Of a stretch of 64,000 bases of DNA, positions 1 to 22,513 are shown piece after piece. Position 1 is the first letter of the stretch; each line of letters begins with the position of its first letter. The notes under the pieces were generated by a model. It was not told where the DNA came from. It did no database searches and saw only the letters and a list, made by a program, of their open reading frames with translations. Origin of the DNA: an uncultured Chitinophaga sp. (GTDB lineage Bacteria > Bacteroidota > Bacteroidia > Chitinophagales > Chitinophagaceae); NCBI RefSeq assembly GCF_902168175.1, contig NZ_CABHOU010000072.1:248001-312000 (forward strand), written 5' to 3'. Made by a program: the position numbers and the translations under genes.

Positions 1-3000
1 TAACTGCTACCGACGCTTGTAGCACTTTCCCTGTAACCATTACTTACCGTCAGGATACAGTGCGTGCAGTGGGCGCATGTCTTAATAACTACCAGTTAGT
101 TCGCACCTGGATCGCTACTGATACTTGCGGTAACGCTGATAGTGTTAAACAAACCATTACTGTAGTAGATACCACTGTGCCGGTGTTCAATCCTGCTACA
201 GTGCCTGCGAACGTAACGGTTGAGTGTGACGCTATCCCTGGTGCCGCTACGGTGACAGCTACCGACGCATGTAGCACTTTCCCTGTAACCATTACTTACC
301 GTCAGGATACAGTGCGTGCAATTGGTGCATGTCTTAATAATTACCAGTTAGTTCGTACCTGGATCGCTACCGATACCTGCGGTAACGCTGACAGTGTTAA
401 ACAAACGATTACTGTAGTAGATACCACTGTGCCGGTGTTCAATCCTGCCACGGTACCTGCGAACGTAACAGTTGAATGTGACGCTATCCCTGGTGCCGCA
501 ACTGTAACAGCTACCGACGCATGTAGCACTTTCCCTGTAACAATTACTTACCGTCAGGATACAGTGCGTGCGGTTGGTGCATGTCTTAATAATTACCAGC
601 TGATCCGTACCTGGATCGCTACTGATACTTGTGGTAACGCTGACAGTGTTAAACAGACCATTACTGTAGTAGATACCACTGTGCCGGTGTTCAATCCAGC
701 CACTGTACCTGCAAACGTAACAGTTGAATGTGACGCCATCCCTGGTGCCGCTACGGTGAATGCTACCGACGCTTGTAGCACTTTCCCTGTAACAATTACT
801 TACCGTCAGGATACGGTGCGTGCAGTTGGCGTATGTCTTAATAACTACCAGTTGATCCGTACCTGGATCGCTACTGATACTTGTGGTAACGCTGACAGTG
901 TTAAACAAACGATTACTGTAGTAGATACTACTGTGCCGGTGTTCAATCCTGCCACGGTACCTGCGAACGTAACGGTTGAGTGTGACGCTATCCCTGGTGC
1001 CGCTACAGTGACTGCTACCGACGCATGTAGTACATACCCTGTAACAATTACTTACCGTCAGGACACGGTTCGTGCAGTTGGTGCATGTCTTAATAATTAC
1101 CAGTTAGTTCGTACCTGGATCGCTACTGATACCTGCGGTAACGCTGACAGTGTTAAACAGACCATTACTGTAGTAGATACAACTGTGCCGGTGTTCAATC
1201 CTGCCACTGTACCTGCGAACGTAACAGTTGAATGTGACGCTATCCCTGGTGCCGCTACGGTGACTGCTACCGACGCTTGTAGCACTTTCCCTGTAACAAT
1301 TACTTACCGTCAGGATACGGTGCGTGCAGTTGGTGCATGTCTTAATAACTACCAGTTAGTTCGCACCTGGATCGCTACTGATACCTGTGGTAACGCCGAT
1401 AGTGTTAAACAAACGATTACTGTAGTAGATACTACTGTGCCGGTGTTCAATCCAGCCACTGTACCTGCGAATGTAACGGTTGAGTGTGACGCCATCCCTG
1501 GTGCCGCTACTGTAACAGCTACCGATGCATGTAGCACTTTCCCTGTAACCATTACTTACCGTCAGGATACAGTGCGTGCAATTGGTGCATGTCTTAATAA
1601 CTACCAGTTAGTTCGTACCTGGATCGCTACTGATACTTGCGGTAACGCTGATAGTGTTAAACAAACCATTACTGTAGTAGATACTACTGTGCCGGTGTTC
1701 AATCCAGCCACGGTACCTGCGAACGTAACAGTTGAGTGTGACGCTATTCCTGGTGCCGCAACTGTAACAGCTACCGACGCATGTAGCACCTACCCTGTTC
1801 GCATCGATTACCGTCAGGACACGGTGCGCACAATTGGTGCATGTCTTAATAATTACCAGTTGATCCGTACCTGGATCGCTACTGATACTTGTGGTAACGC
1901 CGATAGTGTTAAACAAACCATTACTGTAGTAGATACTACTGTGCCGGTGTTCAATCCAGCCACTGTACCTGCAAACGTAACGGTTGAGTGTGACGCTATT
2001 CCTGGTGCCGCAACTGTAACAGCTACCGACGCATGCAGCACCTACCCTGTTCGCATTGATTACCGTCAGGACACCGTGCGCACGGTTGGTGCATGTGTAA
2101 GCAACTACCAGTTGATCCGTACCTGGATCGCTACTGATACCTGCGGTAATGCCGACAGTGTTAAACAAACCATTACTGTAGTAGATACTACTGTGCCGGT
2201 GTTCAATCCAGCCACTGTACCTGCCAACGTAACGGTTGAGTGTGACGCTATCCCTGGTGCTGCTACGGTGACTGCTACCGACGCATGTAGCACCTACCCT
2301 GTTCGCATCGATTACCGTCAGGACACGGTGCGCACAATTGGTGCATGTCTTATTAACTACCAGCTGATCCGCACCTGGATCGCTACTGATACTTGCGGTA
2401 ACGCTGATAGTGTTAAACAAACGATTACTGTAGTAGATACTACTGTGCCGGTGTTCGATCCTGCCACTGTACCTGCAAACGTAACGGTTGAGTGTGACGC
2501 TATCCCTGGTGCCGCAACTGTAACAGCTACCGACGCATGTAGCACTTTCCCTGTAACCATTACTTACCGTCAGGATACGGTGCGTGCAGTTGGTGCATGT
2601 CTTAATAACTACCAGTTAGTTCGCACCTGGATCGCTACTGATACCTGCGGTAACGCTGACAGTGTTAAACAAACCATTACTGTAGTAGATACTACTGTGC
2701 CGGTGTTCGATCCTGCCACGGTACCTGCGAACGTAACAGTTGAATGTGACGCTATCCCTGGTGCTGCTACGGTGACAGCTACCGACGCATGTAGCACCTA
2801 CCCTGTTCGCATCGATTATCGTCAGGATACGGTGCGCGCAATTGGTGCATGTCTTAATAATTACCAGTTGATCCGTACCTGGATCGCTACTGATACCTGC
2901 GGTAACGCTGACAGTGTTAAACAGATCATTACCGTGATCGATACCACTGTGCCAGTGTTTGATCCAGCCACTGTGCCGGCCGATGTGACCGTAGAATGTA

Positions 3001-4595
3001 ATGTGATTCCGGGAGCTGCCAATGTAACGGCAACCGACGCATGTAGCCAGTTCCCTGTGAGGATCGACTACCGCCAGGATACATCACGTACCGGAGCAGC
3101 TTGCGTAAACAACTACCAGTTGATCCGTACCTGGATCGCTACCGATACCTGTGGTAATATGGATAGTGTTAAACAGATCATTACCGTGATCGATACCACA
3201 CGTCCAGTATTTGATCCTGCCACTGTGCCGGCTGACGTAACAGTAGAATGTACCGCTATCCCTGGTGCTGCTGCTGTAACCGCTACCGATGCATGTAGCC
3301 AGTTCCCTGTAAGGATTGACTACCGTCAGGACACATCACGTACCACATCGACCTGTATTAATAATTACCAGTTGATCCGTACCTGGATCGCTACCGATAC
3401 CTGCGGTAACATGGACAGTGTGAAACAGATCATTACGGTGATCGATACCACACGCCCTGTGTTTGATCCTGCTACAGTACCGGCTGACGTAACAGTAGAA
3501 TGTACCGCCATCCCTGGTGCAGCTACACTGACCGCCACCGACGCCTGCAGCATCTACCCTGTTCGTATCGACTACCGCCAGGATACATCACGCACTGCTG
3601 GTGCTTGTGTAAACAACTACCAGCTGATCCGCACCTGGATTGCTACCGATACCTGCGGTAACATGGATAGTGTGAAACAGATCATTACCGTGATCGACAC
3701 TACACGCCCTGTGTTTGATCCTGCAACTGTACCGGCTGACGCCACAGTAGAATGTAACGCCATCCCGGGCGCTGCTACTGTAACAGCTACCGATGCCTGC
3801 AGCATCTACCCTGTTCGTATCGACTACCGCCAGGATACCTCCCGTACCGGTGCTGCCTGCGCGAACAACTACCAGTTGATCCGCACCTGGACCGCGATCG
3901 ATACCTGTGGTAACATGGATAGTGTGAAACAGATCATTACGGTGATCGACACCACACGCCCAGTGTTTAATCCAGCCACTGTACCGGCCGACGTGACCGT
4001 AGAATGTAATGTGATCCCGGGAGCTGCCAATGTAACGGCGACCGACGCTTGTAGCCAGTTCCCTGTGAGGATCGACTACCGCCAGGATACATCACGTACC
4101 GGAGCAGCTTGTGTAAACAACTACCAGCTGATCCGTACCTGGATCGCTACCGATACCTGTGGTAATATGGATAGTGTGAAACAGATCATTACCGTGATCG
4201 ATACTACACGTCCAGTATTTGATCCTGCCACTGTACCGGCTGATGCCACAGTAGAATGTAGCACAATACCTGCTGCTGCTGCTGTAACCGCCACCGATGC
4301 ATGTAGCCAGTTCCCTGTAAGGATTGACTACCGCCAGGATACAGCCCGTGCAGCAGGCGCCTGCTTCAACAACTACCAGTTAATCCGTACCTGGATCGCC
4401 ACCGATACCTGCGGTAACATGGATAGTGTTAAACAGGTACTGACTGTGATCGATACTACCAAACCGGTGTTCAATATGATAACAGTACCGGCCGACACCA
4501 CAGTTGAATGTAGTGCCCTGCCATCTGCTCCTGTAGTAACTGCTACGGACGCATGCAGCCCTGCCGGTGTAACTGTTACCATGACCACCAGAGTT
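1..4595 (+). repeat. 252-bp tandem coding repeats, subfamilies A and B
   Basis: Eighteen full units of exactly 252 bp (84 codons) plus the tail of another at the left edge. Units starting near 60 to 2832 (subfamily A) are nearly identical in DNA and carry VVDTTVPVF and GNADSVKQ. Units from about 3084 to 4344 (subfamily B) carry VIDTTRPVF and GNMDSVKQ. The unit near 2832 is a chimera, with an A-type first half and a B-type second half. Within B, similar segments recur at a distance of 1008 bp (four units), as seen around 2970-3120 against 3978-4128. Confidence 0.95.
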
Positions 4596-8583: not shown

Positions 8584-8615
8584 AGAGAGGCTGCCTTGTG
8601 CAGCCTCTCTTTTTT
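8584..8615 (+). terminator. Intrinsic terminator of the giant repeat gene
   Basis: A perfect 11-bp stem (AGAGAGGCTGC at 8584-8594 with its complement at 8600-8610) has a 5-nt loop and is followed by a run of six T on the plus strand. It lies 35 bp after the stop codon. Confidence 0.9.
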
Positions 8616-9142
8616 CATCCCTGTTGTACCCAGTCTTTGTAATGGGTAACCATGTAAAACAGGTCTTTTCCCCGCGTATAAAAGCCGTTCGAAGAATAAG
8701 GATAATCGCCCGCATCACGACAAAGTTGCCAGTTGGCGCGCATCGGATTTGTATGCATCATGTGCAGCAGATGAACGAGCTCACGCTCGCTACTGATACC
8801 GGTTGTTTTAACCGGCGTTTCCCAGATGGCTCCCTCCGGATATCCACTCGTATGCAGCACGCGCTCAAGCATGATCGGTTGTTCCTTTCGTAATAAATGG
8901 CGCAGGCTTTCGGCGGTACCCCGCAACAGGCAATCCATCGGCTTCTCCCTGCCATTTGGCCGAAGCTCTTCCCATAACAGGTGTACATGATTGGGCATAA
9001 TTACATAACCGTAAATCCGCACGCATTTTCTGTCGTGCAGCGATTGGAGATAACGGATCACAATGTTCTTGTACTTGTCTGATGCGAGCACCCGTTGCCT
9101 GTTGTTGATACTGACGGTGCAGTAAAAAAGTTTTGGTTCCAT
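8615..9142 (-). CDS. RAYT-like / IS200-type Y1 transposase-domain protein
   Basis: A 175-residue protein with the Y1 (HUH) nuclease motif: a hydrophobic-U-hydrophobic segment GYVIMPNHVHLLW with the HVH histidine pair, followed by an ESLRHLLRK helix and the MHTNPMRANW segment typical of the REP-associated tyrosine transposase (RAYT) group. Such proteins nick single-stranded DNA at short palindromes. I chose the ATG at 9142; a longer form would need a TTG at 9163 that lies inside a TAACTTTG promoter box. It is a single gene without flanking insertion-sequence ends, which fits a domesticated or REP-linked enzyme rather than an active insertion sequence. Palindromic segments lie just upstream (9151-9226). 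The exact catalytic tyrosine was not assigned. Confidence 0.8.
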   Translation of the reverse strand: MEPKLFYCTVSINNRQRVLASDKYKNIVIRYLQSLHDRKCVRIYGYVIMPNHVHLLWEELRPNGREKPMDCLLRGTAESLRHLLRKEQPIMLERVLHTSGYPEGAIWETPVKTTGISSERELVHLLHMMHTNPMRANWQLCRDAGDYPYSSNGFYTRGKDLFYMVTHYKDWVQQG

Positions 9143-9150
9143 AGCGGTTA

Positions 9151-9226
9151 ACAATTTCTCCAAAGTTAGGGAGAGTGTTTGGAACCACGAGCCGAGAAAT
9201 TGTCAGTTTGAGAAGAGAATTTCTCC
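9151..9226. repeat. Small inverted repeats upstream of the RAYT-like gene
   Basis: ACAATTTCTC at 9151-9160 is the inverse complement of GAGAAATTGT at 9194-9203, and the latter also pairs partly with AATTTCTC at 9219-9226. Alternative hairpins are therefore possible between the transposase gene and serA. Whether they are REP-like substrates is inference. Confidence 0.45.
9161..9168 (-). promoter_or_regulatory. -7 promoter box of the RAYT-like gene
   Basis: The minus strand reads TAACTTTG, a full match to the Bacteroidota TAnnTTTG element, 18 bp before the chosen ATG. I see no clear TTTG at -33. Confidence 0.5.
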
Positions 9227-18997: not shown

Positions 18998-19585
18998 TTA
19001 CTTGTACTGCAAAGTATCCGTAACGGTACCGCAATTCAGCATCTGGTCGCCAAAGTACGGGTTGCGGATGTCTGTATGTTCGCTGAGCCAATAGGCACCT
19101 TTGTCGTTAAACGCCATCGGGCAGTACTGGCGGTAAACGGTTTGACCTTTAAGGCCGGTGGCTTTTACCAGGTCGAACAATATGTCGGATACCATCTGGT
19201 ACGAAACGCGCTTCTTTTCGATATCTGTTTCGCCCATCAGACCTGTAAGTTCGGCACTGATATCGCCGGAAGCGGCCGTAACGATGTTATAAATGCCGGA
19301 GTCGGAACGAAGTACGTCTACCGGTAAGCTGTCGATGCTATGCTTAAGTGCCAGTGCGGCTTCGTTGGCCTTAATATCGCTGGCGGCCACGAGTGATTCG
19401 GACAGGTGATAGTAGTTATTGAGCGCTACTTTCAGCGAATCATAGAACACGCCCGGGTACGGGGCCTGGAAAGCCGCCTGCACGGTAGTATCGGCTACTT
19501 CCGCTGCCGTTTTACCTCCCTGGTTACAGGCCGTGAATACTAATATCCCTGCTATAGCTGCTATTCCCAATAAATTCAATCGCAT
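18998..19585 (-). CDS. DUF3347-like lipoprotein
   Basis: 195 residues with a lipoprotein signal (ILVFTAC, Cys20). The C-terminus has the pattern QYCPMAFNDKGAYWLS...IRNPYFG..MLNCG, which resembles the DUF3347 domain found alone or attached to heavy-metal efflux adaptors in Bacteroidota; the Cys, Met and His residues suggest copper or other soft-metal contact (inference). The N-terminal half is helical. It lies upstream of the TonB receptor on the same strand. Confidence 0.75.
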   Translation of the reverse strand: MRLNLLGIAAIAGILVFTACNQGGKTAAEVADTTVQAAFQAPYPGVFYDSLKVALNNYYHLSESLVAASDIKANEAALALKHSIDSLPVDVLRSDSGIYNIVTAASGDISAELTGLMGETDIEKKRVSYQMVSDILFDLVKATGLKGQTVYRQYCPMAFNDKGAYWLSEHTDIRNPYFGDQMLNCGTVTDTLQYK

Positions 19586-19601
19586 ATCCTTACGTTTGCA
19601 A

Positions 19602-19609
19602 CAAAGATA
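19602..19609 (-). promoter_or_regulatory. -7 promoter box of the DUF3347 gene
   Basis: The minus strand reads TATCTTTG, a full match to TAnnTTTG, 16 bp before the ATG. A matching -33 element is not obvious. Confidence 0.45.
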
Positions 19610-19658
19610 ATTAAATCATATTTATTTAGGGGTCAGCTTTAGATACTCTCCCCAGCCC

Positions 19659-19680
19659 CCGTTGCGACGCTCCGTTCAAC
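19659..19680 (+). repeat. Left arm of 22-bp perfect inverted repeat
   Basis: CCGTTGCGACGCTCCGTTCA followed by AC. Its exact inverse complement occurs at 20403-20424, 722 bp further on. The arm is itself partly palindromic (GTTG...CAAC), as REP-like units often are. Confidence 0.85.
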
Positions 19681-19976
19681 GGTAGTTTATCCATCGGGCG
19701 GGAAAAGAATAAGAGGGACGGTAAGCCCCTCTTATCGATATAAAAAGAAAAGCAATCCGCAGCCAAATAATTAAACCAATATGTCAAAGAACTAATGATA
19801 ATGAAAACCGGCACGACAGCTTTTCCGCCTGCCTTTCTCACCATTTTCCGGAGCGGCCATTCAAAGCATCTTACGACGGTAAAAATGACCCAATCCATGT
19901 TGAACAAATACTTTTTACCTGTTCAAAAGCAAAGGTACACCCGTGAAATGCCCATCGGGTTGGAAAAGGAACGAAG

Positions 19977-20020
19977 CTGCATAAACGGGGGAATGAAACT
20001 GCATAAACGGGGGAATGAAA
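19977..20020 (+). repeat. 22-bp perfect tandem duplication
   Basis: Two head-to-tail copies of a 22-bp unit that begins CTGCATAAACGGGGG (19977-19998 and 19999-20020). With only two copies and no spacer it is not a CRISPR. Confidence 0.9.
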
Positions 20021-20242
20021 CCCCTGCCGTCCGGCTATAATGCTTTGTGGGCGCGGAATACAACTCATATAACATTGTGGCAGATGTATTTATAGTTATA
20101 ATTGAGGTGGTTGAAGTGGATACATGAGGTTATTTCATCAGTCAATTTTAAATTTTAAGCGGTGGGCAGGGTGGTTTGAGCAGCGTCTTACGCATGTCGT
20201 TCCGGGCAACCAGGCATTAAGAGCCGTAATGGTATACCGAAG

Positions 20243-20346
20243 GTATATCGATCCTATATCGATCCTATACTCGCCGTCACCACCAGCCTGCGTTTCAAAG
20301 GATTTGGGTATAGGATGGGTATAGGATCGGTAAAGGATCGCTATAC
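20243..20346. repeat. Long imperfect hairpin built of iterated GATCCTATA steps
   Basis: The left arm 20243-20270 and the right arm 20319-20346 are inverse complements at 25 of 28 positions, with a 48-nt loop. Each arm contains two steps of the motif GATCCTATA or a close variant, and a further TATAGGAT copy lies in the loop side of the right arm. A stable cruciform or RNA stem is possible. Confidence 0.75.
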
Positions 20347-20402
20347 AAAGAATACCAAGTTGCGCATGAGATGTATTTATAATGTTTGGGAGCGGACCGG
20401 GA

Positions 20403-20424
20403 GTTGAACGGAGCGTCGCAACGG
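20403..20424 (-). repeat. Right arm of 22-bp perfect inverted repeat
   Basis: Exact inverse complement of the arm at 19659-19680. It lies about 110 bp before the ABC-F start codon. Confidence 0.85.
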
Positions 20425-20459
20425 CGGCTGAATCTACTTCCCCCGGCTGGTGCCCACCC

Positions 20460-20494
20460 TTGTTTCCTAAAGCCGGTTTTAAATAGTAACTTTG
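20460..20494 (+). promoter_or_regulatory. Probable promoter of the ABC-F / two-component unit
   Basis: TAACTTTG at 20487-20494 is a full match to the TAnnTTTG box, with a TTG at 20460-20462 (spacer 24 nt, longer than ideal). It gives a leader of about 35 nt. Confidence 0.55.
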
Positions 20495-20533
20495 ACAGAT
20501 TTTTTTACAAAATAGACTAAGTAACGACGAACT

Positions 20534-22513
20534 ATGCTGTTAGCATTACAGGATGTAACCTTTGAGTTTGGAGCCCGGACTATTGTACAGGACGCCTCCT
20601 GGCATATAGTACCCGGCGACCGTGTGGGACTGATCGGTATGAATGGTACGGGTAAATCGACCCTGCTCAGGATCATCAACGGTGAATATTCCATTTCCGG
20701 CGGAAGTATTAATAAAGCCAAAAACCTTTCCCTGGGGTTCTTTAACCAGGACCTGCTCAGTTTTGAGTCCGACGATTCTATTCTCGAAGTGGGTATGACC
20801 GCCTTTGAGGAAGCCGTAAAGGTGGAAAAGGAACTGGAACGACTGGTAGCGGAAATGGAGCACAACGAAAGCGAAGCCCTGCTGAACGATTACAGCGATA
20901 AACTGCACCTTTTCGAAACGCTCGACGGTTATAACATGCGTAACAAGGCCGCCGCCGTACTGGAAGGTCTTGGTTTTAGCACCGCCGCGCTCGAACGCCC
21001 GTACAGCACCTTTTCCGGTGGCTGGCGTATGCGTGTGCTGCTTGCAAGGCTCATCCTGCAGCAGCCCGACGTGTTAATGCTCGATGAACCGACGAACCAC
21101 CTTGACCTTCCCTCCATCGAATGGCTGGAAAGGTACCTGCAGAACTACGGTGGCGCGGTAATCATTGTATCGCACGACCGTTACTTCCTCGATAAAATGG
21201 TGAACAAGGTGGTGGAACTGTACCAGCAGGAACTGCACCACTATGCCGGTAACTACTCCGACTACGAAGTAGAAAAGGACATGCGCCGCGAACTGCAGCA
21301 ACGTGCCTACGAAAACCAGCAGGATTACATCCGCCAGCAGGAAAAGTTTATCGAACGCTTTAAAGCCAAAGCCTCCAAGGCCGCACAGGCTCAGAGCGTG
21401 ATGAAACGCCTCGACAAACTGGACCGCATTGAGCAGGTAGACAGTGGTCCGTCTAAAATCCGTATTAACTTTTCTGTAGATAAACAGCCCGGTAAAATAT
21501 TGCTCACGCTCAGCGACGTATCTAAGAGCTTTGGCGATATTAAAGTACTGGAAAACACCGGCGCGGAAATTAACCGCGGCGATAAAATTGCACTGATAGG
21601 TGCGAACGGTAAAGGTAAATCGACGCTGCTGCGCATTATTGCCGGCACCGAACCCATTACTGGTAACCGCATACCAGGGCACAATGTTATCAGCAGCTTT
21701 TACGCACAGCACCAGCTCGAATCGCTGAATCTCGATGATGAGATACTCGAAGAGCTGAAAAGCAGCGGCGGCGGGCGTACCGAAATGGAACTCCGCTCCC
21801 TGTTAGGTTGCTTCCTGTTTAACGGCGACGATGTGTTCAAAAAGATCCGCATCCTGTCGGGTGGAGAAAAAGCCCGTGTAGCACTGGCCAAAACCATCAT
21901 CAGCCAGGCCAACTTCATGCTGCTCGATGAGCCCACGAACCACCTTGATATGTTATCTGTTCAAATGCTGATCGATGCACTGGACAAATACGAAGGTAGT
22001 TTCGTACTCGTATCGCACGACCGTTACTTTGTAAGCCAGACGGCTAATAAGATATGGGAGATCGTGGACGGCGAGATCAAAGAATTTAAAGGCACTTACG
22101 CCGAGTGGGAAGAGCATAAACGCCGCCAGGCATTGCGGGAAGCGCAGGCTAACCAGCAGGCGGCAGCGGAAAAGAAAGCGGCAGCAGCTGCGGCGGAAGC
22201 ACAGAAAAAGAACACACCGGCCCCCGCCCCTGTTAAAGGTGCAGGCGCAATCGATAAAGACGCCCAGAAAGAGTTGCAGAAGCAGCAGAAACAGTTTTCC
22301 CAGATCGAATCACAGCTGAGTAGCCTTAATGGCCGCAAACAGAAGCTGGAAGCCGAAATGGGCGAGCCTGCCACTTACTCCGACCAGGGGAAGTTTAAAC
22401 AATGCGAACAGGAGTATGCCCAGGTGGGTAAAGAACTGGAACGCGTGAACCAGCAATATGAAAAGGTGTTTGACGCCATCATGGAGCTGGAAGCTAAGCT
22501 GGGTAAGGCGTAG
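20534..22513 (+). CDS. ABC-F family ATP-binding protein
   Basis: A 659-residue soluble protein with two ABC cassettes and no membrane domain. The first cassette has Walker A GMNGTGKST, signature FSGGWRMR and Walker B VLMLDEPTNHLD; the second has GANGKGKST, LSGGEKAR and FMLLDEPTNHLD. A charged linker between them matches the P-site-tRNA interaction motif region, and a C-terminal Ala/Gln/Lys-rich coiled coil (about 530-655) resembles that of Uup-type proteins. ABC-F proteins act on the ribosome, relieving stalls or conferring antibiotic protection; which subfamily applies is not certain. The response-regulator gene follows by 23 bp. Confidence 0.93.
   Translation: MLLALQDVTFEFGARTIVQDASWHIVPGDRVGLIGMNGTGKSTLLRIINGEYSISGGSINKAKNLSLGFFNQDLLSFESDDSILEVGMTAFEEAVKVEKELERLVAEMEHNESEALLNDYSDKLHLFETLDGYNMRNKAAAVLEGLGFSTAALERPYSTFSGGWRMRVLLARLILQQPDVLMLDEPTNHLDLPSIEWLERYLQNYGGAVIIVSHDRYFLDKMVNKVVELYQQELHHYAGNYSDYEVEKDMRRELQQRAYENQQDYIRQQEKFIERFKAKASKAAQAQSVMKRLDKLDRIEQVDSGPSKIRINFSVDKQPGKILLTLSDVSKSFGDIKVLENTGAEINRGDKIALIGANGKGKSTLLRIIAGTEPITGNRIPGHNVISSFYAQHQLESLNLDDEILEELKSSGGGRTEMELRSLLGCFLFNGDDVFKKIRILSGGEKARVALAKTIISQANFMLLDEPTNHLDMLSVQMLIDALDKYEGSFVLVSHDRYFVSQTANKIWEIVDGEIKEFKGTYAEWEEHKRRQALREAQANQQAAAEKKAAAAAAEAQKKNTPAPAPVKGAGAIDKDAQKELQKQQKQFSQIESQLSSLNGRKQKLEAEMGEPATYSDQGKFKQCEQEYAQVGKELERVNQQYEKVFDAIMELEAKLGKA

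What the first reader, a model, noticed from the sequence alone, without database searches (positions are those of the whole stretch)
19586..20533. Non-coding island bounded by a perfect 22-bp inverted repeat
The arms at 19659-19680 and 20403-20424 are exact inverse complements 722 bp apart, far beyond chance, and the interior has no credible gene but several structured repeats. The arm is partly palindromic. It could be a non-autonomous mobile element, a pair of REP-like units or a structured RNA locus. It is the best candidate for something undescribed here.
Basis: partly seen in the sequence, partly recalled or inferred. Interest (0 to 1): 0.65.

Follow-up and report, generated by a model that had tools for sequence, protein, structure and literature searches.

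The report
REP-like repeat pair with swapped interior
The island is a pair of inverted copies of a short repeat that this bacterium carries about 190 times, mostly between its genes, enclosing a mosaic of other repeats; a sister species has the pair at the same place but with different DNA inside, which makes it a member of a little-known, widespread kind of bacterial repeat element rather than a lone curiosity.

Summary
The 22-bp arms are real and perfect (28 bp with one mismatch). They are the centre of a ~75-bp repeat unit ("E"); the arm occurs about 189 times in this genome (controls 1 and 0). Neighbouring arms face each other: 17 of 19 pairs within 2 kb. The element spans about 19628-20455, between two divergent promoters. 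At this locus 31 of 31 other genus genomes tested have a short spacer without arms. The sister genome G051 has two facing E arms there, of another subtype, with an unrelated interior. In 12 of 15 shared E sites the interior is unrelated or missing; usually only one of two arms is kept.
E occurs across Chitinophagaceae, with up to ~1,630 copies per genome. In one related MAG near-touching dimers fold as ~120-nt hairpins. I read the island as a REPIN/BIME-like element filled with other repeats: an 11-bp AGGAT-iteron hairpin, a possible small-RNA unit, 22-bp repeats. RAYT-like proteins track E across the genus, but here they lack the catalytic tyrosine and are not flanked by E, so RAYT-REP membership is unproven. 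The paper searches made here found no description of the family.

The parts
19628..20455 (.). Whole element: two inverted E units with a mosaic interior; outer ends AGGGGTCAGC / GGCTGGTGCCC
   Evidence: Column profile of 100 arms shows conservation from about 30 bp outside to about 43 bp inside the arm and little beyond; nhmmer matches in L001
19628..19701 (+). Left E unit (REP-like)
19659..19680 (+). Left 22-nt arm CCGTTGCGACGCTCCGTTCAAC
19708..19736 (-). Terminator-like hairpin of a possible small-RNA unit; the stem differs between copies while pairing is kept in 5 of the 6 copies that have it
   Evidence: 6 of the 11 copies have it
19777..19794 (-). AGTTCTTTGACATATTGG; exact match found in 11 fetched G000 loci. 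The 21-mer AGTTCTTTGACATATTGGTTT has a tRNA gene within 100 bp downstream on the same strand in 14 of 16 viral contigs that hold it, so probably a promoter
   Evidence: promoter role inferred; some of the 16 contigs have near-identical surroundings
19930..19937 (-). TACCTTTG, fits the Bacteroidota -7 consensus (consensus recalled)
   Evidence: also in the other long-type copies printed (L005, L008, L009, L018, L032), not in L010 and L011
19968..20011 (+). Two 22-bp direct repeats (91%)
20232..20346 (.). Core hairpin: inverted arrays of ATCCT/AGGAT with 11-bp period around a 45-nt loop with GCGTTTCA (GGGTTTCA in most G000 copies); 24 dispersed copies in the genome, itself included
20383..20455 (-). 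Right E unit (REP-like)
20403..20424 (-). Right 22-nt arm
19602..19609 (-). TATCTTTG, probable -7 box of the lipoprotein gene, outside the element
   Evidence: consensus recalled
20487..20494 (+). TAACTTTG, probable -7 box of the ABC-F gene, outside the element, also in G051
   Evidence: consensus recalled
18998..19585 (-). Left flanking gene, 195-aa lipoprotein-like (by reading), DUF3347
20534..22513 (+). Right flanking gene, ABC-F type ATPase: two ABC_tran domains, ABC_tran_Xtn, ABC_tran_CTD
8615..9163 (-). RAYT-like protein (REP_Tyr_transpos below cut-off), HUH motif NHVH present, catalytic Tyr position is Met

Best explanation
The island is a REPIN/BIME-like composite repeat. Shown: two ~75-bp REP-like units (E) face each other and bound a mosaic interior; E is a high-copy, mostly intergenic family found across Chitinophagaceae; the site has no arm in 31 related genomes and is occupied by facing E units in this genome and its sister G051, with unrelated interiors and different arm subtypes. 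Inferred: one insertion before the two species split, then replacement of the content. The ancestral mobile form was the simple dimer still seen in other genera, two E units nearly touching, which folds into a hairpin as single-stranded DNA. It was spread through single-stranded DNA by a HUH (RAYT/TnpA_REP-type) enzyme, inserting into A/T-rich spacers, often at 3' gene ends. In Chitinophaga recombination between the many copies now changes what lies between and beside them, so islands gain, lose or swap modules, arms included. The present RAYT-like protein, which lacks the catalytic tyrosine, may at most bind E. The flanking promoters lie outside the element, so the host probably tolerates it. 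I put the REP-like, formerly mobile dimer at about 0.8, exchange by recombination at about 0.45 (lowered from 0.5 after the recount showed that most sites keep only one arm), and RAYT as the original enzyme at about 0.4.
For: Arm copies 92+97, controls 1 and 0. Facing pairs: 17 '> <', 2 '< >', 0 tandem among neighbours within 2 kb in 80 fetched regions. Unit ends defined on 100 arms. 31 of 31 genus genomes other than G000 and G051 have a spacer of about 54-213 bp and no arm; G051 has about 570 bp with 2 arms. Interior unrelated or missing in 12 of 15 shared sites, 1 partly aligned, 1 solo unit aligned throughout, 1 without arm in G051 (junctions). Control: in the same regions 4 of 4 E-free spacers of 150 bp or more align fully, while 14 spacers with E (arms masked) align over a median of 11.5%. 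Modules recur between loci: 65% of 100 arms have a same-orientation match to another locus at 51-75 bp inside, 18% at 500 bp. Convergent spacers 32 of 77 with an arm vs 28 of 144 without; median spacer 388 vs 100 bp. Copies 28 to 1,630 in 8 other genomes, controls 0-1. Near-touching dimers of one MAG fold with z -5.6 to -8.8 (4 of 4 tried). RAYT-like proteins of groups A/B read in 18 of the 19 genus genomes with 6 or more arms; group A, with HUH, read only in the three genomes with most arms.
Against: Arms are not steadily kept: of 31 G000 arms at 20 matched loci only 15 have a same-orientation arm at the place in G051; of 10 two-armed G000 sites among the 15 only 2 have two arms in G051, and in L094/L256 the arm is inverted. 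In 5 of the 12 changed sites the G051 gap is under 260 bp, so the interior is largely missing rather than replaced. The control spacers are few (4) and shorter (170-373 bp) than E spacers (median 719), and the one short E spacer compared (180 bp, L070) aligns fully. No RAYT gene checked in the genus has an arm in the fetched flank (37 loci). E units near RAYTs elsewhere (L343, L347, L348, L350, L354) are what E density predicts or weak. G098 has 309 arms and no RAYT match (MAG, completeness unknown); G041 has 7 arms and none. Chitinophaga RAYTs of groups A/B lack the catalytic Tyr, group B also the HUH motif. The GTAG tag is exact in only 16 of 75 units with a readable outer box in other genera and decayed in G000. 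No target-site duplication was recognised. RAYT and E may co-occur through shared ancestry: E genomes lie in two clades of the ABC-F tree.
Confidence: 0.6

Rival explanations
1. A MITE: E units are terminal inverted repeats of a non-autonomous transposon, moved by a DDE transposase of an IS elsewhere; the interior is cargo.
For: Paired inverted ends, armless spacers in relatives, A/T-rich outer flank, facing pairs 118-1,925 bp apart, a 220-aa ORF between two E units in L110 with DNA similarity in L128.
Against: Most arms read stand alone at up to 4 mismatches (60 of the 80 regions hold one arm); the unit is complete as a solo ~75-bp repeat (L079 and its orthologue); no target duplication recognised; near-touching dimers with no interior; no transposase met between E ends in the three widest pairs looked at.
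Confidence: 0.15
2. A host-functional site: E is a protein-binding or chromosome-organising site kept by selection, with islands as by-products; arm subtypes follow a co-evolving DNA-binding protein, perhaps the Tyr-less RAYT.
For: Arm dyad GYGWCRC kept by covariation of positions 7 and 11 (T-A 130, C-G 23, other 0 of 153 arms that match the fixed positions); species-typical subtypes (TGTCACTCCCT 83 of 98 in G000; TGTCACTCACT 30 and TGTCACTCCCT 10 of 55 in G051); RAYT-like proteins in most E genomes, group A about 11 kb from the ABC-F gene in both G000 and G051.
Against: Copy number 0 to ~1,630 among related genomes, 39 of 79 genus genomes without a match; the 153 arms are not independent, since subtypes are inherited families; arms often not kept at orthologous places.
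Confidence: 0.2
3. A structured regulatory RNA locus transcribed across the island, closed by the arms as a long stem.
For: Promoter-like and terminator-like sequences in several copies; conserved core hairpin.
Against: Interior differs between species at the same site; 1 of 20 core pairs shows a double change; no Rfam match reached its gathering score; most arms read are alone.
Confidence: 0.07

Closest known systems
REP / REPIN / BIME elements with RAYT (TnpA_REP), GTAG-tagged REP super-family
   Same: Up to hundreds or more short intergenic units per genome, facing inverted dimers, preference for convergent spacers, near-touching dimers fold as ssDNA hairpins, RAYT-like genes in most carrier genomes checked
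   Different: Unit ~75 bp instead of 20-40; a single unit folds poorly; GTAG tag degenerate; interiors up to ~1 kb that differ between sister species; RAYT-like proteins of this genus lack the catalytic Tyr; no RAYT flanked by E beyond what E density gives
BrickBuilt MITE of Porphyromonas gingivalis (PMC4596501; abstract and passages seen)
   Same: Bacteroidota, intergenic, tandem repeats (23 nt there; 22 and 11 nt here) inside an inverted-repeat element
   Different: 19 copies in strain ATCC 33277, 12-nt ends similar to those of ISPg1/ISPg9, end sequence unrelated by reading; reported from P. gingivalis and P. gulae only, as far as the passages show
Subclass 2.6 TnpA_REP of Bacteroidetes with 'atypical secondary structures' (PMC6006769; passages seen)
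   Same: Bacteroidota RAYTs whose flanking structures have copies elsewhere in the genome
   Different: Motif there is NH[LIV]H and YIH[QN]NP; in group A here the Tyr is Met, Asn or Leu; flanking E not found in Chitinophaga
CGTC-tagged REPs (PMC3733652; abstract and passages seen)
   Same: REP-like, no dedicated transposase, present in Bacteroidetes
   Different: E has no CGTC tag; a CGTC-like unit occurs separately inside some islands (L018, L087, L100; by reading)

Membership tests
REP / REPIN (RAYT-associated) | High copy number, mainly intergenic | tested here: met
   189 arms, controls 1 and 0; 12 of 100 arms fall in ORF calls of 100 aa or more, the rest outside (crude gene calls)
REP / REPIN (RAYT-associated) | Units form facing inverted dimers | tested here: met
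   17 of 19 neighbour pairs within 2 kb; 12 of 17 pairs within 1.5 kb in the 65 loci, 3 of the other 5 from one tandem array
REP / REPIN (RAYT-associated) | Each unit is a 20-40 nt palindrome that folds | tested here: not met
   Unit ~75 nt, 4 single-unit folds z +0.57 to -0.88; near-touching dimers fold
REP / REPIN (RAYT-associated) | GTAG tag at one end | tested here: inconclusive
   Exact GTAG in 16 of 75 units of other genera with a readable outer box (99 units examined); GGGA 14 and GTAA 5 of 63 readable in G000 (102 examined)
REP / REPIN (RAYT-associated) | A RAYT gene flanked by the repeat | tested here: not met
   0 of 37 genus RAYT-like loci within the fetched flank of about 1.5-2 kb; other genera not above E density
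RAYT / TnpA_REP (protein at 8615-9163) | HUH motif | tested here: met
   NHVH
RAYT / TnpA_REP (protein at 8615-9163) | Catalytic Tyr (YIxNNP) | tested here: not met
   HMMHTNP in the alignment; no structure predicted
RAYT / TnpA_REP (protein at 8615-9163) | NCBIfam cut-off (80 bits) | tested here: not met
   64.8 bits, E 7.4e-18
MITE | Terminal inverted repeats | tested here: met
MITE | Target-site duplication | tested here: inconclusive
   None recognised by reading flanks and one filled/empty comparison
MITE | Ends shared with an autonomous element | not tested
   No transposase with E ends was met, but none was searched for systematically
Known structured RNA (Rfam) | Covariance match above gathering score | tested here: not met
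   4 matches, all far below gathering scores
Mobility in the present | Presence or absence among strains of one species | not testable with these tools
   One genome per species held

The most novel reading that the evidence does not exclude
E sites act as docking places for interchangeable intergenic cassettes: places on the chromosome stay in use over species divergence, while interior modules, and at some loci both arms with their subtype, are exchanged with other loci of the same genome, managed by a RAYT-derived protein that has lost its cleavage chemistry.
Probability: 0.15. Interest if true: 0.8.

Novelty: new variant of a known kind. Interest (0 to 1): 0.52.

Why it matters
If right, the family Chitinophagaceae, and perhaps its relatives, carries a REP-like family that I found no report of, reaching ~1,600 copies per genome. 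Its islands separate two questions usually mixed: how repeat sites stay in place and how their contents turn over. It also offers RAYT-like proteins without the catalytic tyrosine beside abundant repeats, a direct way to test whether such transposases can turn into repeat-binding host proteins. The 11-bp AGGAT arrays, whose spacer letters differ by lineage, are a second puzzle ready for a binding screen.

Tried and rejected
Tried without result: Rfam; plasmid and phage collections (no match to the element); E arm in viral contigs (none); sigma-70 and terminator scan of the island (1 promoter-like site, shuffles 2.2; 0 terminator-like, shuffles 1.4; it does not cover Bacteroidota promoters, and its loop limit of 8 misses the hairpin at 19708-19736). 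Paper searches for this family: (Chitinophaga with 'repetitive extragenic palindromic') 0 papers; (Chitinophagaceae, interspersed repeats, intergenic) 0; 7 papers, of which one names Chitinophaga (a soil community study, by listing); (six literal sequences) 5 papers, unrelated by title. Wider searches (228, 57 and 106 papers) were read only as listings of 15, 15 and 10.

Considered and rejected: insertion exactly at the 22-bp arm (an early match of the flank ACTCTCCCC to genome G010, locus L050, I take as coincidence since one search placed the unit end 30 bp further out). A REPtron in a Segetibacter MAG (L348: three E units near a RAYT with YFHNNP) was first thought decisive; one search showed 1,340 arms in 4.1 Mb, so it is expected. 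Integron-like attC sites: core-site letters do not fit by reading (motif recalled). CsrA-type GGA decoy RNA for the AGGAT arrays: not tested (motif recalled). Core hairpin as a selected RNA helix: 1 of 20 pairs doubly changed.

Dropped rows and partial use: one search left out L033 and L034 (no core match), and I left the divergent L020 row out of alignment A1 (21 of 22 found rows, of 24 loci). The 13 dimers were picked because they were listed as facing pairs, so they are not counted as orientation evidence. One search listed 100 of 189 arm places; I fetched 80 regions from that list. One search listed 50 of the 115 arm places of G051. In one search, 21 G000 regions matched a G051 region; 15 with usable flanks on both sides were compared, 20, 17. 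L068 (arms 3,435 bp apart) is left out of the pair count. G069 and G006 had no ABC-F match and are untested at the window locus. The AGGAT pattern control is not clean: the reversed pattern gives 16 in G000 against 38, 25 in G081 against 42, 9 in G008 against 0, partly because TATAGGA repeats fit both.

Full report
Observation. The arms at 19659-19680 and 20403-20424 are exact inverse complements, 722 bp apart, and extend to 28 nt at 96%. It is the longest near-exact inverted repeat found in the window with a 14-nt seed. The arm pattern has 2 matches against 0.13 expected. ORFs lying wholly in the interior are 81 aa or less.

The arm is a repeat. In the window's genome (G000, 6.65 Mb, 109 contigs) the pattern CCGTTGNGNCNCTCCNTTCANC with up to 2 mismatches occurs 92 + 97 times; the reversed control gives 1 and 0. 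I fetched 80 regions around listed sites and read 100 arms. A column profile shows conservation from about 30 bp outside the arm (outer end GGGACCAGC after an A/T-rich stretch) to about 43 bp inside, and little further. I call this ~75-bp unit E. In the window the element is therefore about 19628-20455. Neighbouring arms within 2 kb are 17 times '> <', twice '< >' and never tandem in those regions. The window pair is one more '> <'. Spacers with E are longer (median 388 vs 100 bp) and more often convergent (32 of 77 vs 28 of 144) than spacers without, by a crude ORF-based gene call. The window spacer is divergent, the least common class (10 of 77). Its two probable -7 boxes (TATCTTTG at 19602-19609 minus, TAACTTTG at 20487-20494 plus; consensus recalled) lie outside the element.

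Armless and filled sites. The gene pair left and right of the island is kept in the genus. In 31 of 31 genomes other than G000 and G051 where both genes were found, the spacer is about 54-213 bp and has no arm. The sister genome G051 (ABC-F protein 90%; lipoprotein 76%) has a spacer of about 570 bp with two facing E units at the same place. Both its arms have the subtype TGTCACTCACT, where both G000 arms have CGACGCTCCGT, and the interior is unrelated. The simplest reading is one insertion before these two species split and a change of content after it.

How general this is. Of the G000 regions, 21 matched a fetched G051 region by flanking genes, and I compared 15 in detail. In 12 no interior match longer than 60 bp remains; in 5 of these the G051 gap is under 260 bp, so the interior is largely missing there, and in 7 it is 303-491 bp of other sequence. 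In 1 (L070/L241) part of the interior aligns, 1 solo E (L079/L245) aligns throughout, and 1 (L087/L262) has no arm in G051 (junctions). Arms are not steadily kept: of 10 sites with two arms in G000 only 2 (the window and L100) have two in G051, and in L094/L256 the arm is inverted. Of 31 G000 arms at 20 matched loci, 15 have a same-orientation arm at the place; of these 2 keep the same 11-nt core, 5 differ as CTCCC/CTCAC, 1 by another letter and 7 switch between the TGTCA and CGWCG subfamilies. A control in the same regions: 4 of 4 E-free spacers of 150 bp or more (170-373 bp) align fully, while 14 spacers with E, arms masked, align over a median of 11.5% (Mann-Whitney p 0.006). The control is small and its spacers are shorter; the one 180-bp E spacer also aligns fully. 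Interior modules recur at other loci of the genome, for example 86% identity over 533 bp between L005 and L008.

Inside the arm, positions 7 and 11 vary together so that the dyad GYGWCRC is kept: T-A 130, C-G 23, other 0 of 153 arms matching the fixed positions in G000 and G051. These are inherited subtypes, so the count is not 153 independent events.

The interior is a mosaic. The core at 20232-20346 has 24 copies in G000, itself included, the others 75-87% identical. Its plan in G000 is (ATCCT-N6)n, a 45-46-nt loop, (AGGAT-N6)n; two G051 examples have loops of 46 and 80 nt, and none was matched by this strict pattern in the few fetched G003 and G043 loci. The loop carries GGGTTTCA in most G000 copies (GCGTTTCA in the window). 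The AGGAT spacing peaks sharply at 11 bp in the G000 arm regions: 26 pairs, against 0-3 at other spacings except 8 at 22 bp. A triple-AGGAT pattern occurs in 29 of 79 genus genomes, with lineage-specific spacer letters; the reversed control is not clean (for example 16 against 38 in G000). It is not tied to E: G003 has 39 and only 2 arms, while G024 and G066 have none and 13-14 arms. In an alignment of 21 cores the 20-pair stem has 1 pair with a compensatory change, so I read the array as DNA sites rather than a selected RNA helix. Another module has AGTTCTTTGACATATTGG on the minus strand (19777-19794), found exactly in 11 fetched G000 loci. The longer 21-mer is found in 16 viral contigs, with a tRNA gene within 100 bp downstream on the same strand in 14 of them (L366 has one 250 bp away, L370 none). 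In 6 of the 11 copies it is followed by a variable stretch and a terminator-like hairpin, whose stem differs between copies while pairing is kept in 5. A small RNA is an inference. A 22-bp direct repeat lies at 19968-20011.

Distribution. With a related pattern, 40 of 79 genomes of the genus have at least one match; 19 have 6 or more, the most being 184 (G000), 115 (G051) and 40 (G069). Segetibacter and Pinibacter are Chitinophagaceae, order Chitinophagales. In 8 such genomes counts are 1,630, 1,340, 903, 309, 265, 69, 58 and 28, controls 0-1. In one MAG two E units nearly touch at 5 places, and the four that I folded as single-stranded DNA have z -5.6 to -8.8, 0 of 200 shuffles as good. In other genera the outer end is exactly GTAG in 16 of 75 units with a readable box, of 99 units examined.

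RAYT link. The window holds a RAYT-like gene (8615-9163): NCBIfam REP_Tyr_transpos 64.8 bits, cut-off 80. In the genus 54 of 79 genomes match that family at E 0.01, 1 over the cut-off. I extracted 37 proteins and read an alignment of 26. Two groups are seen in 18 of the 19 genomes with 6 or more arms: 17 in the alignment, and G057 by its motifs, which equal those of G055; G041 has no match. Group A keeps HUH and was read only in G000, G051 and G069, the three richest in E. Group B has lost HUH. Both lack the catalytic Tyr. Proteins of 15 genomes with 3 or fewer arms were extracted; the 6 that I aligned are in neither group, the other 9 I saw only as motif lines, and hits of the remaining E-poor genomes were not extracted. 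The gene in G051 lies about 11 kb from ABC-F, as in the window. Against a direct link: no arm lies in the flanks of the 37 loci, E units near RAYTs in other genera (L343, L347, L348, L350, L354) are weak or explained by E density, G098 has 309 arms and no match, and the E genomes fall into two clades of the ABC-F tree (support values not read), so shared descent may explain the co-occurrence.

Known kinds. PMC3733652 (abstract and passages) describes GTAG and CGTC REPs, facing dimers, a preference for convergent and unidirectional spacers, and RAYT genes flanked by REPs or other inverted repeats. PMC6006769 (passages) reports Bacteroidetes RAYTs flanked by atypical structures with copies elsewhere in the genome. 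PMC8266576 (passages) reports that E. coli TnpA_REP needs GTAG and describes the catalytic Tyr. PMC4596501 (abstract and passages) describes the BrickBuilt MITE; PMC5771137 (passages) mentions it. The island works like a REPIN/BIME and is filed as a variant, not as a proven RAYT-REP, because the flanking-RAYT and single-palindrome features were tested and not met. Paper searches found no description of this family in the held library.

Verdict. A real, multi-copy element; the best reading is a REP-like pair with changing mosaic content. It is not a lone novelty, but it belongs to a little-known family with an unusual property: places that stay in use while the content, and often one arm, changes.

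Noticed in passing
window 1-4588: Eighteen 252-bp repeats in register, 69-94% identical to the first, probably a repeat-domain protein gene.
   Followed up: no
window 8615-9163 (-): RAYT-like protein with HUH motif but Met at the catalytic Tyr position; the group A proteins of G051 and G069 have Asn and Leu there.
   Followed up: partly
   Followed up: no
L018, L087, L100: A second palindromic repeat like CGTCATCGCGAGGAACGAAGCGATGACG inside E islands (read); resembles CGTC-tagged REPs.
   Followed up: no
L110 2804-3466: 220-aa ORF between two facing E units; DNA similarity (67% over 374 bp) to the E island in L128, no Pfam family at E 0.1; possible cargo.
   Followed up: partly
G003 and G049: AGGAT 11-bp arrays (39 and 21) in genomes with 2 and 1 arm matches; spacer letters differ by lineage, so the arrays look like an independent family.
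   Followed up: partly
L364-L379: AGTTCTTTGACATATTGGTTTstands within 100 bp upstream of a tRNA gene in 14 of 16 viral contigs, likely a widespread Bacteroidota stable-RNA promoter.
   Followed up: partly
L077 2924-3484: 186-aa ORF without a Pfam or NCBIfam match at E 0.1 between two facing E units 1,153 bp apart.
   Followed up: no
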